From an uncultured Erysipelotrichaceae bacterium (GTDB lineage Bacteria > Bacillota_I > Bacilli_A > RFN20 > CAG-826), in assembly GCA_902800025.1 (NCBI GenBank), contig CADCDA010000001.1, forward strand, positions 152,288 to 216,287: DNA of 64,000 nt. Reading direction: 5' to 3'. Every line of letters starts with the position of its first letter. Position 1 is the stretch's first letter. Of the stretch, positions 33,010-38,716 are shown in pieces. The notes under the pieces are model-generated. The model had not been told where the DNA came from, did not search any database, and worked only from the letters and a program-made list of their open reading frames with translations. The position numbers were made by a program, and so were the translations under genes.

Positions 33010-33807
33010 CTATTTGTCAAAGACATATTCAAATGATGCATATGGATATGTATAGTCCACGATAACATCATCTTTCTTTTTTAATATATATCTAATCTTC
33101 ATAGAAGGACATTCATGGATAGTTCTTACCATATCTCCCATCTTAGGAGCTTTTAATCCATGTCCTGATTTATCATCTAATATAAATACTTCTAAAATAT
33201 ATCTACCTTTCTTAATGACAATATGTTCTCTACTTATCTTTTTCGCAGTAGCAAAGTTATATGTTCCAAACCTATATTGTTTATCATTATGGACCAATAA
33301 AGATAACACTCCTTTAAAATGAAATAACCCAAAAGGTATATCTGCAACCGCTAAAGTGAGAGAATCATTCTTACTAGAAGCATTAAGCCATAAATACTCT
33401 TTAGGAAAACTTCTTCCTTTATCTCCTTCTATATATCCATTTCCATCAGTAAAATCTAGTGTCTTTCCATTTAATATAACTGATCCACTTAAAGTGTGGT
33501 TCATAGAATATATATCATGCTTACATTCAATAGGAAGAAATCTAAAATAAGACATCACATGTTTCTTAGTCTTTAATAACTCTCCATATGATATATGTCC
33601 TTCTAAGTCTATATCATCTTGATGAATAGATAGCTCTATTCCTTTAAAAGACGCTTTTACACTATTAATATCTTTTATATTCCAACTTTGATCATTCGCC
33701 ACTACTTGTACCATATCAATTCCATTAGAAGTAGATATAATAATAGCTAAAACATAACCATCCCTGGTTTGATGTTTATAATAAATACCAAAGAATCCTT
33801 TTCTCAT
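33010..33807 (-). CDS. Tocopherol cyclase-like family protein
   Basis: A 265-residue all-beta protein that resembles the tocopherol cyclase-like family (PF14249-type). Family-like blocks are the N-terminal GFFGIYYKHQ, CKHDIYSMNHTLSG, the strong GNGYIEGDKGRSFPKEYLWL and the later YRFGTYN. In plants and cyanobacteria these proteins cyclise tocopherol precursors. Bacterial relatives in Firmicutes have no known substrate, and no quinone pathway is near. A hydrophobic-ligand-binding role is plausible but unproven. Confidence 0.72.
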   Translation of the reverse strand: MRKGFFGIYYKHQTRDGYVLAIIISTSNGIDMVQVVANDQSWNIKDINSVKASFKGIELSIHQDDIDLEGHISYGELLKTKKHVMSYFRFLPIECKHDIYSMNHTLSGSVILNGKTLDFTDGNGYIEGDKGRSFPKEYLWLNASSKNDSLTLAVADIPFGLFHFKGVLSLLVHNDKQYRFGTYNFATAKKISREHIVIKKGRYILEVFILDDKSGHGLKAPKMGDMVRTIHECPSMKIRYILKKKDDVIVDYTYPYASFEYVFDK

Positions 33808-33867: not shown

Positions 33868-33885
33868 GAGCGGGATATCCCGCTC
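33868..33885 (-). terminator. Terminator of the toxin-antitoxin-chaperone operon
   Basis: Perfect 18-base palindrome GAGCGGGATATCCCGCTC, followed on the minus strand by TTTGTTTTTTA. Its stem sequence recurs in the terminator at 47879-47897. Confidence 0.85.
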
Positions 33886-33904
33886 ATTTGCGATAATATT
33901 ATTT

Positions 33905-34858
33905 TTACTTATCTTCACTCGTTTCCTTATTAAACAAAACATATGTGTTCATAATTGGTAAAACAAATGCTTTGCCCAACGATTGAGTGGTTATATTACT
34001 AATCAGCTCTCTTAAATATGGGAACAATATAGTAGTTGTGTTTTCTAGCATCACGAATTGTGATTCCTTCGTAGATTCCCAGTTTTTTGATTCAAAGATG
34101 CCATTAATCTCTATGCAGATATCGAATGGATGAGTCGAATCAGATTTGTGAACGAATTTTAATGTTATAAGTGCCGCATCACTACCGTTTTTTCCTACCT
34201 TCTTTTCAAAATGACAGTTCATATTTTTATAATCAAGTTCTGAGGTATTGATAATGGCTTTGCTCTTATTAACAAAGGAATAATTAGTGACAAAGTATTT
34301 GATTAGTTTAGTTCTATATTCATGTTTAACTTCCTCCTTGCTATAACTGAATCCGTTATCTATATCGCAATCCATTATCCACCTTACCTTGCCTTCATCC
34401 ACAAAATTTCCGAAGAATTGCTTAATGTCAAACATTGGGGCGTCTAAATTTTGTATTTGCCTAATTGTGTAATACGAATCGTCTTTATCAACAAGCCTAA
34501 TTAAAAGATCAAATGCCCTATCTTGAATAGTGCCATTTTCGTATCTAGTAATATTCTTTTCACCACAATTGATTAGTTTTGCTAACTGTGCTTGAGACAA
34601 GTGTCTCTTTTCTCTAATGGCCTTTATTTCTTTGCTTGTTAAAAGACCTTCTAGTCTTCTGTATTCATCAAAAATGATGATGTCGTTTGCTTTTGCAATA
34701 GAGTCAGGAAAAACTTGCTCCCCACATTTTTTGCAATAGGCATTAGTTATTTCAACATCAAAAACTCTTCCTCTAACATTGACTGTCTTTTTTTCTTTTT
34801 TTGTAACGTATTCAACTTCTTCTTCGCAATTAACGCAATAAATCTTATTAATATCCAT
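33905..34858 (-). CDS. MqsA-type zinc-finger/XRE antitoxin fused to a SecB-like chaperone domain
   Basis: From the ATG at 34858 (317 residues) three parts are visible: a zinc finger with CVNC (8-11) and CKKC (42-45) as in MqsA; an XRE helix-turn-helix (about 70-125, LSQAQLAKLINCGEKNITRY); and a C-terminal domain (about 200-312). In the last, ENTTTILFPYLRELISNIT and FVLPIMNTYVLF resemble the end of SecB. In toxin-antitoxin-chaperone systems SecB is normally a separate gene that shields an unstable antitoxin. A TTG start at 34900 is possible but lacks a ribosome site. The toxin precedes it. Confidence 0.8.
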   Translation of the reverse strand: MDINKIYCVNCEEEVEYVTKKEKKTVNVRGRVFDVEITNAYCKKCGEQVFPDSIAKANDIIIFDEYRRLEGLLTSKEIKAIREKRHLSQAQLAKLINCGEKNITRYENGTIQDRAFDLLIRLVDKDDSYYTIRQIQNLDAPMFDIKQFFGNFVDEGKVRWIMDCDIDNGFSYSKEEVKHEYRTKLIKYFVTNYSFVNKSKAIINTSELDYKNMNCHFEKKVGKNGSDAALITLKFVHKSDSTHPFDICIEINGIFESKNWESTKESQFVMLENTTTILFPYLRELISNITTQSLGKAFVLPIMNTYVLFNKETSEDK

Positions 34859-34865
34859 TTTACGA

Positions 34866-35198
34866 CTAACTGTATTCGTCTTCGTGAAGACTAATAACAA
34901 TTGTAACCTTCCCTTTATTTATAATTTTTATTTTTATATAACATCGATGACCAAATCCATTTTTCTTAAATATCCAAACAGGGTGTTTCCTCTCTGGATT
35001 ATCATCAGGAACGGGGCCTTTGTCCAAATCACTTTTATTTAAAGACCTTATAAAGTCTTTTGCATCAGCGGTTGTGATATTGTTGTACAAAAGAAACTGT
35101 TCGTTTTTTTCTCGATTAAGTAATATCTGAATTTGCTCATCGCTACTATGAGAGACTATATCAATAATCTCATCAATAGTTAACGAATCAACATCCAT
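34866..35198 (-). CDS. MqsR-family-like toxin
   Basis: A 110-residue protein whose second half (DAKDFIRSLNKSDLDKGP, NPERKHPVWIFKK, RCYIKIKI, ISLHEDE) resembles MqsR-type mRNA interferases of type II toxin-antitoxin systems. The N-terminal 30 residues are an added helical segment. The toxin gene comes first, as usual for mqsRA. It ends 7 bases before the preferred antitoxin start. AAAGGAGG precedes the ATG by only 3 bases. Confidence 0.75.
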   Translation of the reverse strand: MDVDSLTIDEIIDIVSHSSDEQIQILLNREKNEQFLLYNNITTADAKDFIRSLNKSDLDKGPVPDDNPERKHPVWIFKKNGFGHRCYIKIKIINKGKVTIVISLHEDEYS

Positions 35199-35236
35199 AG
35201 GCCTCCTTTCCTATTTTATAATAAAATATCATTTTT

Positions 35237-35250
35237 GTATCATATGATAC
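35237..35250. promoter_or_regulatory. Operator candidate of the toxin-antitoxin operon
   Basis: A 14-base perfect palindrome GTATCATATGATAC lies about 40 bases upstream of the toxin ATG, next to an AT-rich promoter region. A likely site for the XRE antitoxin. Confidence 0.55.
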
Positions 35251-35362
35251 CATTTTAGATGAATTTATGTCTGTGTCAAGAACATAATGAAAATAATAGG
35301 AGGAGAAACGTTTACTTATAAACGTGCAACAAACATACCGGGGAACCATCCAGTGTTCTATT

Positions 35363-35833
35363 TTAAAATTTTACTCCTGCAGCATTGTATTTTAATATAG
35401 CATCGTCAAGCTCTTTATCTGGTCTATTGAAATCATCATATTTTTTGCACGCAATCGTAGTTTCAATTTCATTGTCAATTTCAATAAATCCTATAAGAAA
35501 TATGGTGTGAAAAGAATATTTATACGCATATAGCAACATAAGCACCTCACAATAATCCCAGAACTCTTGTTTGCTATACGACTTTGGTTTAACAACAAGA
35601 AGCAAGCCAAAATCATCTTTGCGAGATAAGGCAGGCGAATATGCGTTATCATCTTCCTTACATTTTTTTAAACAAAAATCCCAATGCGTCGCAAACTTGT
35701 AAGCATTGTTAATGTCAACACTATTTATAAAAGAGAAAAAATCTTTTTTTAGTTTTACGTCAGAGCATTCAACTTCCAGCGAATTTCTAATATGATTTGA
35801 AATACAATTAAATAGTGCTAGCTTTTCTTCAAT
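35363..35833 (-). pseudogene. Open frame of about 156 codons without a normal start
   Basis: The frame is open for about 160 codons down to a TAA at 35363, but has no ATG or GTG near its 5' end. Directly upstream in the same frame is a TAA (35848-35846), beyond which the frame is open again for about 40 codons towards the previous gene. The protein is hydrophilic, then has a hydrophobic strand region (YAYKYSFHTIFLIGFIEID). A nonsense mutation, an ATT start at 35833, or a late TTG at 35605 are all possible. It trails the PHP-ATPase operon and may be its third gene. Family unknown. Confidence 0.4.
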
Positions 35834-35973
35834 GGTAGTTTTTGATTAATTTTTATTGTTATAGCGTTTTTGATTGATTTCATCGTCGTTATTATCAATA
35901 AATATAGCAATGGCGCTGTTTCTTTCAGCGCCACAAATCACTATTAACAAAAGAGCATGCTTAACAAATTCTA

Positions 35974-36318
35974 TTATTGTTCTTTTGTCTCTTGGGTTTC
36001 TTTCAACTTTGTAAAGCAATCCTCAATGGTGTTGTTACATATAGAAATTATATCATTTATTAATTCAAGCAGTTTTGAAAAAGAATCTTCAGAATAAAAC
36101 GTTTGGTTCTTTATATCGTCATCATTTAAATTAATCAAATCTTTTTCTTTCTTTAAAAGTGACTCTATCAGCTTCTTTTGAAAAAAATCATGTAAATTTA
36201 ATGTATTATGGTTCTCGATGTCAATTGTCACATAATCAGTAATTGTATTATCAAAAGATTCACCTTCAAACAAATAACACTTTTTCTCCTCTTTGTTATA
36301 AAAAGATTTAATTTTCAT
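35974..36318 (-). CDS. Small protein coupled to the PHP-ATPase
   Basis: A 114-residue acidic protein, beta-rich at the start (FYNKEEKKCYLFEGESFD) and helical from residue 60. No family is recognised. Its ATG lies inside the last codons of the PHP-ATPase gene (11-base overlap), which implies coupled translation and a functional partnership, for example an accessory subunit or inhibitor. Confidence 0.65.
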   Translation of the reverse strand: MKIKSFYNKEEKKCYLFEGESFDNTITDYVTIDIENHNTLNLHDFFQKKLIESLLKKEKDLINLNDDDIKNQTFYSEDSFSKLLELINDIISICNNTIEDCFTKLKETQETKEQ

Positions 36319-38716
36319 TTTCAGTCACCTTCTTTATAATATTTATTCCATATTTTGAAGTTCTTTTTATCATAGCTTCTTTGCCGCCTTCTAAGATGTC
36401 GCAAACTTCTTTTATAAATGACGTATTCTCAATGCATCCAGATTGATAGTCAAAATACTTTTTATTGTTTTCCAATATCCTATCACTTGCAATAAAAATG
36501 TTTTCAGAATCAATACCTATTCCAACATTTCCATTATGAGTAATGATGATGCACTGAAAAAGCACAGATTTCTTTTTTAATTCAGTAATCTTTTTTGTAA
36601 TTGTGTTATAAATGTTTTTGTTGTCTATATCGTTTTCAGGCTGATCTAAAAACAGCACAATAGATTTGTTGTTAGCAATATCATTATCAATTAAGTCAAA
36701 CAACAGATTCATAAACAAGGACGCTTTTTCACCCGATGATTTTTTCAACAAACTATTACTACCCTTGTAGATGTCATATTTTGCATTCTCTTTCTTAAAT
36801 AGTCCGTTAACTTTTTCAATATAATTATCTAAACACTTTGCAAAGGTATTTTTATTTCTAAATACTTCACCATAATATTCAATAAATAAAATGGTTTTAA
36901 ACAAATCGTCTTTCTTGCAGTTACCACTTGAAAATGTATCAACAACGGAAGGATACGAATCGTTACTCTCATATGTTCTTTCTATCTTGTAATCGCCAAA
37001 TAACGATTCAGTTGTTGGCTTAATCATTTCATCATATTTGCTCTTTTTAAGTGTTGAAGAAAGCAGGCAAGCTTGCTCGCAAAAACTACTAATCGTATTA
37101 CACTTTTTTTCAAAATCTTTTAAAAGAGTATCAGCTTTTTTCTTTTCTTCATTATTAATATATGCTTCGATATAAGCTTTTATTAGTTCAATAACTTTTT
37201 CATATGCTGAGGATTTTTGATAAAAGTTCAAAATATCAATCTTGTTTTTAATTATACTGTTGGCTTTTTTTAAAACATCAGTTTCTTCTTTATTAAAAAT
37301 ATAGACATCAGCAACTTTGATGTTATCAATTGAATCTAAATTGCTGTTTGAAATAGTATCGATGACGTATTGGATGTCATAATTTTCCCCGTTCAAAACA
37401 CTATAATAGTTTTCGTTTCTAAAGGCTTTTTGGTAATCAAGGTTATTTACAGATGATTTATCACTAAGCATCTTTTTTAAAGCCTCGTATGCCTTGATAA
37501 TGTCATCTTTGTTAAAGATGAATGAAATATCTTCAGCACATTTATAAGATATCTTAAGTTTTTTAAACAACGAATCAACTTCTTTAAATCCAAAACACGA
37601 TTTGTAAGAATATTCTTCCTTTTGTGCAAGTTCATACCATTTTAATAATTCACCACTATTCTCAACTGAATCATATAGGGAGCCGTTAATCTTAATTTTA
37701 AACAATGGTTGGTCATTGTAAAAATCCTTGTAATGATCATTTTCCTTAAGCCCTTTGTTGCCACTTATTATTCTTTTGAGCAGCAAAGTCTTTCCGCTTC
37801 CAAATCTTCCGATAACTGTATTGCAATAAGGAGAAAGAATGTACTCGTTGTTATCTAAATAAAACGATTCAATGTATTTATTATTCAACTCAGTTTTCCT
37901 AACTCCAAATACACCATCAAGAGATATTCTTAACCTCGGCTCTTCAAAAGCAGTCTTAATTGAATTAAATGGGAATTCGATATTGCTCAGCATGTAGCAT
38001 TTAGTGCTTTTATCATTTTCGTTTTTACCTTCAGGATATTTTTCCAAATTATGATTATCTGAAAATGCAACAAAAGGAAAATCGCAGTTACAATTTATAT
38101 AGCACTTCAGTGATTTACTTAATAATGCAACATTATTACTATCTTCATAAGCATTAAAACAAAGACGATTAAGCTCGTTCAATAATTTGTCTGTGTCTTG
38201 ATTTTTGTATGATATGCCTTTATGCTTATCACGATAATGCGGAATTAAAATTATGTTTTTAATTTCATTTTTATTAAGGGTGGTAAAGACATCATTTATT
38301 GAAGGATATAGTGTTTTATCATTTCTTTTTGATTCTTCAAAATTATCAAACAATTCCGAAACCGCAGAATTAACTAAATCATAATCTTTGGTGTCGAATA
38401 GAACAAGGCAATGAAAGGTATCTTTGTCATAAATATTTGGATCATTTATGTCTAATTCAACACCTATAACAAAATTAATTCTATTAATATATTTATCCGA
38501 TTTAATCAACGAACACAAATCTTTATAAAGAGGGGTATTAATAGAATTATGATCTGTTATTGAAAAAATTCTAATGTCATGTTCAAGCAGTGTGTCCAAT
38601 AATTCAGACGCAGAAAAAGAGGTGCCTTCATAGTCGTTAGGCTTAACCTCGTTACTTTTTGGCGAGTGTATATGCAAATCAACGCCATTCCATGTAGAAA
38701 ATTTCATATTATTCAT
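36308..38716 (-). CDS. PHP-domain/ABC-type ATPase fusion (TrlF-like), probable defence protein
   Basis: An 802-residue protein. Residues 10-225 form a PHP phosphoesterase domain with metal-site motifs VDLHIHSP (His15, His17), TDHN (Asp55, His56), GVE (Glu87), IPHY (His160) and SDNH (220-223). Residues 290-800 form an SMC/ABC-like ATPase: Walker A GRFGSGKT (303-310), a long helical middle, the signature-like SSGEKAS, Walker B VLFLDQPEND (Asp691) and ITHN. This is the layout of ATP-gated nucleases used in phage defence and tRNA or nucleotide attack. It resembles proteins named TrlF-like. A small coupled gene follows. Confidence 0.85.
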   Translation of the reverse strand: MNNMKFSTWNGVDLHIHSPKSNEVKPNDYEGTSFSASELLDTLLEHDIRIFSITDHNSINTPLYKDLCSLIKSDKYINRINFVIGVELDINDPNIYDKDTFHCLVLFDTKDYDLVNSAVSELFDNFEESKRNDKTLYPSINDVFTTLNKNEIKNIILIPHYRDKHKGISYKNQDTDKLLNELNRLCFNAYEDSNNVALLSKSLKCYINCNCDFPFVAFSDNHNLEKYPEGKNENDKSTKCYMLSNIEFPFNSIKTAFEEPRLRISLDGVFGVRKTELNNKYIESFYLDNNEYILSPYCNTVIGRFGSGKTLLLKRIISGNKGLKENDHYKDFYNDQPLFKIKINGSLYDSVENSGELLKWYELAQKEEYSYKSCFGFKEVDSLFKKLKISYKCAEDISFIFNKDDIIKAYEALKKMLSDKSSVNNLDYQKAFRNENYYSVLNGENYDIQYVIDTISNSNLDSIDNIKVADVYIFNKEETDVLKKANSIIKNKIDILNFYQKSSAYEKVIELIKAYIEAYINNEEKKKADTLLKDFEKKCNTISSFCEQACLLSSTLKKSKYDEMIKPTTESLFGDYKIERTYESNDSYPSVVDTFSSGNCKKDDLFKTILFIEYYGEVFRNKNTFAKCLDNYIEKVNGLFKKENAKYDIYKGSNSLLKKSSGEKASLFMNLLFDLIDNDIANNKSIVLFLDQPENDIDNKNIYNTITKKITELKKKSVLFQCIIITHNGNVGIGIDSENIFIASDRILENNKKYFDYQSGCIENTSFIKEVCDILEGGKEAMIKRTSKYGINIIKKVTENEN

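What the first reader, a model, noticed from the sequence alone, without database searches (positions are those of the whole stretch)
33868..35250. Toxin-antitoxin-chaperone system with SecB fused to the antitoxin
The antitoxin has an MqsA-like zinc finger (Cys8, 11, 42, 45), an XRE domain and a C-terminus with ILFPYLREL and LPIMNT that looks like SecB. Known TAC modules encode SecB separately and use a C-terminal antitoxin tail to bind it. A covalent fusion would make the chaperone part of the antitoxin and could tie toxin release to export stress or phage takeover. The toxin is MqsR-like and the operon has a 14-base palindromic operator.
Basis: partly seen in the sequence, partly recalled or inferred. 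Interest (0 to 1): 0.7.

Follow-up and report, generated by a model that had tools for sequence, protein, structure and literature searches.

The report
Antitoxin fused to its own chaperone
A gut-type bacterium carries a toxin-antitoxin switch in which the antitoxin and the folding helper it normally needs as a separate protein have become one protein, apparently through a tiny recent DNA change, which makes it a natural test of how such anti-virus switches are triggered.

Summary
Window 33905-34858(-) encodes one 317-aa protein: an MqsA-type zinc finger plus XRE domain (Pfam MqsA 37.2 bits, TIGR03830 98.8 bits), a ~50-residue tail, and a full SecB domain (PF02556 35.1 bits, cutoff 26; AlphaFold pLDDT about 90; the top 23 Foldseek PDB hits are all SecB or SecB-like). 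The partner 34866-35198(-) has an MqsR fold (best PDB match MqsR 3hi2). The 14-nt palindrome is real: GTATCA-N2-TGATAC sits at or near the toxin start in about 36 of 41 related loci and occurs once in this genome. About 19 distinct split relatives (mqsR-mqsA-secB, MqsRAC-type TACs) were found; in most, secB starts inside the end of mqsA in a shifted frame. None is fused. At the window junction a perfect Shine-Dalgarno (AAGGAGG) and ATG remain, out of frame, where SecB begins: apparently the old secB start. So this is a TAC whose last two genes were joined, probably recently, by a small indel. Not shown: that the fusion is fixed in the species rather than a strain mutation or assembly error, and that it works. 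Export-stress claims have no support; phage sensing is plausible by analogy to MqsRAC and CmdTAC.

The parts
35252..35279 (-). promoter-like site TTGACA-16-TAAAAT (11 of 12 matches)
35237..35250 (.). operator GTATCATATGATAC, conserved as GTATCA-N2-TGATAC at or near the toxin start in about 36 of 41 related toxin loci
34866..35198 (-). MqsR-family toxin, 110 aa, preceded by AAGGAGG
34478..34858 (-). MqsA-type antitoxin part of the fused gene (residues 1-127: zinc finger C8/C11/C42/C45 plus XRE HTH)
34325..34477 (-). tail (residues 128-178), in the place of the chaperone-addiction tail of split TAC antitoxins
34333..34339 (-). AAGGAGG, apparent leftover Shine-Dalgarno of the ancestral secB
34303..34323 (-). 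apparent leftover secB start, ATG in the shifted frame (MNIELN then stop)
33908..34321 (-). SecB domain of the fused gene (residues 180-317)
33868..33885 (-). intrinsic terminator (GAGCGGGATATCCCGCTC then TTTGTTTTTT)

Best explanation
An MqsR-MqsA-SecB toxin-antitoxin-chaperone module (MqsRAC type) in which mqsA and secB have become one reading frame through a small indel (net one base lost or two gained) just after the old secB start codon. Shown from sequence: the three domains, the conserved operator, the split relatives and a start-like site at the junction. Inferred: the N-terminal part neutralises MqsR and, as a dimer, represses the operon at GTATCA-N2-TGATAC; the tail is held by the SecB domain of the same or a neighbouring chain, so the antitoxin carries its own chaperone at a fixed 1:1 ratio; an unfolded client such as a phage structural protein that occupies the SecB groove displaces the tail and exposes the antitoxin to unfolding or proteolysis, freeing MqsR to cut mRNA and stop the infection, without loss of a separate chaperone subunit.
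For: SecB and MqsA domains in one ORF; SecB fold; MqsR fold; about 19 distinct split mqsR-mqsA-secB loci with the same order, about 16 with overlapping mqsA/secB frames; AAGGAGG-N9-ATG at the junction is the only one of six such sites in the window not at a gene start, and it lies where SecB begins; its ATG phase (+1) is the commonest phase in split relatives; tail length fits TAC antitoxins and exceeds that of two-gene relatives; conserved operator; SecB domain scores within the range of split relatives, so no clear sign of decay. MqsRAC and CmdTAC are experimentally shown anti-phage TACs; in CmdTAC capsid protein displaces the antitoxin from the SecB-like chaperone (PMC9519451, PMC11618068).
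Against: Only one genome shows the fusion; no other SecB hit or related TAC locus was fused. The intact leftover ribosome site suggests the joining is recent, so it may be a strain mutation; an assembly error of one base cannot be excluded. A junction site of this kind arises by codon choice alone in 3.6% of trials. The mechanism (neutralisation, trigger) is by analogy only. The SecB loop that grips the antitoxin tail in M. tuberculosis (Leu-Pro-Pro-Leu) reads Gly-Lys-Ala-Phe here, so tail binding may differ.
Confidence: 0.72

Rival explanations
1. Strain-level mutation: the joining is a recent chance indel that locks or weakens the module (antitoxin can no longer be parted from its chaperone), not a selected architecture.
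For: Unique to one genome; Shine-Dalgarno and ATG at the junction still perfect; the free C-terminal end of the antitoxin tail, a protease signal in CmdTAC (PMC11618068), is lost.
Against: Toxin keeps the MqsR fold and SecB domain shows no clear decay; operator and promoter intact.
Confidence: 0.25
2. Assembly or sequencing error: the real genome has split mqsA and secB and one base is missing in this draft contig.
For: Draft genome in 26 contigs; a single base could separate split from fused; all relatives are split.
Against: No long homopolymer at the junction; base-level indel errors are rare in short-read assemblies (general knowledge; the sequencing method here is unknown).
Confidence: 0.15
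3. An MqsA antitoxin with an unrelated C-terminal sensor domain, such as Panacea (PanA).
For: MqsA-Panacea fusions exist among relatives (L079) and are known TAs (PMC10440598).
Against: C-terminal domain hits SecB above cutoff by sequence and matches it by fold; no Panacea hit.
Confidence: 0.01

Closest known systems
MqsRAC TAC of E. coli C496_10 (Vassallo et al. 2022, PMC9519451)
   Same: MqsR toxin, MqsA antitoxin, SecB-like chaperone in one operon
   Different: There the chaperone is a separate protein that can be supplied in trans; here it is the C-terminal domain of the antitoxin
Split MqsRA-SecB loci of Bacilli and Clostridia (e.g. L017, L058, L071, L090)
   Same: Homologous toxin, antitoxin and SecB in the same order; same operator; overlapping mqsA/secB frames in most
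   Different: Two reading frames instead of one
MqsR:PanA (MqsA-Panacea antitoxin, PMC10440598)
   Same: MqsA zinc finger and HTH followed by a C-terminal globular domain in one chain; that domain is proposed to be a sensor
   Different: Panacea instead of SecB
M. tuberculosis HigBA1-SecB(TA) (PMC5105189, PMC6377645)
   Same: Antitoxin tail addicted to a SecB-like chaperone; fold match of the SecB domain to 5mtw
   Different: HigA antitoxin family, separate chaperone
CmdTAC (PMC11618068)
   Same: SecB-like chaperone guards the antitoxin
   Different: Unrelated toxin and antitoxin, separate chaperone displaced by phage capsid protein

Membership tests
Toxin-antitoxin-chaperone (TAC), MqsRAC type | MqsR-family toxin as first gene | tested here: met
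   Fold match to MqsR 3hi2, prob 1.00, E 5e-3; Pfam MqsR 21.2 bits, below the 26.2 cutoff for this protein, but 17 of 23 aligned family members match at E <= 0.01
Toxin-antitoxin-chaperone (TAC), MqsRAC type | MqsA zinc-finger/XRE antitoxin | tested here: met
   PF15731 37.2 bits, TIGR03830 98.8 bits, both above cutoff
Toxin-antitoxin-chaperone (TAC), MqsRAC type | C-terminal chaperone-addiction extension on the antitoxin | tested here: inconclusive
   An extension of matching length is present, but its sequence is not conserved and its binding was not testable
Toxin-antitoxin-chaperone (TAC), MqsRAC type | SecB-like chaperone encoded in the operon | tested here: met
   PF02556 35.1 bits vs cutoff 26; SecB fold
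Toxin-antitoxin-chaperone (TAC), MqsRAC type | Chaperone is a separate third gene | tested here: not met
   One continuous frame 33905-34858, no in-frame start of its own near the SecB domain
Toxin-antitoxin-chaperone (TAC), MqsRAC type | Antitoxin needs the chaperone to neutralise the toxin | not testable with these tools
   needs growth assays
SecB family | SecB fold and profile | tested here: met
SecB family | Homotetramer; export function with SecA | not testable with these tools
   no complex prediction or assay available
PanA (MqsA-Panacea) | Panacea (PF13274) domain | tested here: not met
   no hit; the relative L079 does have it

The most novel reading that the evidence does not exclude
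A working two-gene TAC in which the chaperone is a built-in sensor domain of the antitoxin, so that the toxin is released by an in-chain conformational change rather than by loss of a separate chaperone.
Probability: 0.35. Interest if true: 0.7.

Novelty: new variant of a known kind. Interest (0 to 1): 0.52.

Why it matters
How TAC toxins are released has been worked out in detail for CmdTAC, where the chaperone leaves the antitoxin. A natural fusion tests whether dissociation is required at all. It also shows how overlapping antitoxin and chaperone frames can merge, and gives a simple two-part version for structure work. The conserved operator gives a handle for finding and classifying this MqsRA clade.

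Tried and rejected
First GTDB contig scan with P0001 alone found no relatives; an alignment that included concatenated split pairs as a search query did. Phage and plasmid collections gave only matches over the antitoxin part. The exact junction DNA is absent from IMG/VR. Mixed full-length protein alignments misaligned antitoxin and SecB rows, so structure prediction used SecB rows only; the antitoxin part and the tail of that model are low confidence. Faster evolution of SecB after fusion was tested and not clearly seen: its SecB/antitoxin score ratio is third lowest of 19 but in range. Export-stress sensing was considered and dropped for lack of evidence. Translation of a free SecB from the leftover ATG was considered and rejected: it stops after six codons. 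No paper describing an antitoxin-SecB fusion was found in the library searched, which lacks most subscription journals.

Full report
What is there. On the minus strand of the window, a promoter-like site (35279-35252) and a perfect 14-nt palindrome (35237-35250) precede a 110-aa ORF (35198-34866) and, 7 nt further on, a 317-aa ORF (34858-33905), closed by an intrinsic terminator (33885-33868). The 317-aa protein matches MqsA (Pfam 37.2 bits; TIGR03830 98.8 bits) over residues 8-131 and SecB (PF02556, 35.1 bits, cutoff 26) over 182-313. The best PADLOC model for it is PD-T4-9_C, over residues 189-308; PD-T4-9 is the SecB-bearing system later named CmdTAC (PMC9519451). AlphaFold with SecB-only rows gives pLDDT of about 90 for most of the C-terminal domain and low confidence for residues 99-177. 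All 23 PDB matches at E <= 0.001 are SecB (1fx3, 1qyn, 1ozb, 5jtl), the M. tuberculosis TAC chaperone (5mtw) or two streptococcal proteins of unknown function that share the fold (2o2a, 2hng); the next hit is at E 0.08. The toxin model (pLDDT 89) matches MqsR best (3hi2, prob 1.00, E 5e-3), then RelE-type toxins.

Relatives. The genome (1.57 Mb, 26 contigs, apparently an uncultured gut Bacilli lineage, judged from named contigs of the same family) has no other SecB. In 224 genomes of its family, 24 carry a similar antitoxin, mostly two-gene MqsRA with antitoxins of about 140-170 aa. G218 has a split mqsR-mqsA-secB, G217 probably another with a very divergent SecB, and G119 a three-gene locus laid out like CmdTAC with SecB. 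Searches of GTDB contigs, IMG/VR and about 1000 Bacillota genomes gave about 19 distinct split mqsR-mqsA-secB loci, mainly in Bacilli and Clostridia, two of them on predicted viral contigs, and none fused. These scans are limited by their patterns and sampling.

How the fusion arose. In about 16 of the 19 split loci secB begins inside the end of mqsA in another frame. In the window gene, at the same place, AAGGAGG (34339-34333) and ATG (34323) are found, with the ATG in the +1 frame and a stop after six codons. AAGGAGG-N5-10-ATG occurs six times on both strands of the window; the other five are at gene starts. With codons redrawn from local usage, an AGGAGG-N4-11-ATG appears at this junction in 3.6% of trials. 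The SecB domain starts within a few residues of that ATG. The simplest history is a split TAC whose frames were joined by a small indel within about 20 nt of the old secB start. The intact leftover site in an A+T-rich genome suggests the event is recent (inference). There is no in-frame start from which a free SecB could be made near the domain start.

Operator. GTATCA-N2-TGATAC with at most one mismatch lies within -130 to +20 of the predicted toxin start in 27 of 41 non-redundant toxin loci, and in 9 more just inside predicted starts that look over-extended; it occurs once in this genome. Loci lacking it are MqsA antitoxins with long C-terminal extensions of the Panacea kind. I recall that E. 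coli mqsRA uses a different palindrome (own knowledge). No paper pairing this sequence with MqsA was found.

Mechanism. MqsRAC of E. coli C496_10 protects against phage T2 and needs MqsC for neutralisation; extra MqsC inhibits defence (PMC9519451). In CmdTAC the T4 capsid protein takes the chaperone away from the antitoxin, which ClpP then degrades (PMC11618068). In M. tuberculosis the antitoxin tail binds a SecB groove including Leu154-Pro155-Pro156-Leu157 (PMC6377645); by alignment those positions read Gly-Lys-Ala-Phe in the fusion, and G218 also departs there. A covalent chaperone cannot be titrated away, so either client binding displaces the tail within the complex (preferred, though with well under even odds) or the module is locked. 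MqsA-Panacea antitoxins are a precedent for an MqsA with a fused globular domain proposed to sense a trigger without dissociation (PMC10440598).

Limits. One genome, no reads, no complex modelling, no experiment; literature search confined to openly licensed papers.

Noticed in passing
35237-35250; L003-L090 toxin upstream regions: GTATCA-N2-TGATAC is a conserved operator of a large MqsRA clade across Bacilli, Clostridia, Fusobacteriaceae and WOR-3 loci, in both two-gene and TAC forms.
   Followed up: yes
36308-38716 and 35974-36318: 802-aa PHP-like plus ATPase-like protein with a weak PADLOC Ppl match (E 1.1e-6) next to a 114-aa ORF: a candidate defence gene beside the TA module.
   Followed up: partly
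35363-35860: Long open stretch on the minus strand with no ordinary start codon at its 5' end (only an internal TTG at 35605), possibly a gene that has lost its start.
   Followed up: partly
L022 (G119, same family) 475-1710: Three-gene locus (175 aa, 88 aa ending in LVA, SecB 155 aa) resembling CmdTAC in layout.
   Followed up: partly
L013 (G217, same family) 744-1938: Probable split TAC with a 247-aa antitoxin and a SecB-like protein so divergent that Pfam misses it.
   Followed up: partly
L074, L077, L079, L080, L082-L088: MqsA antitoxins of about 300-344 aa that look like MqsA-Panacea fusions; L079 confirmed by Pfam (73.5 bits).
   Followed up: partly
33010-33807: Protein with a tocopherol-cyclase domain hit above cutoff (32.8 bits), unexpected in this genome.
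   Followed up: no
L026, L029, L045, L047: SecB genes downstream of HigB/HigA-like pairs: apparent HigBA-type TACs in Bacilli.
   Followed up: no
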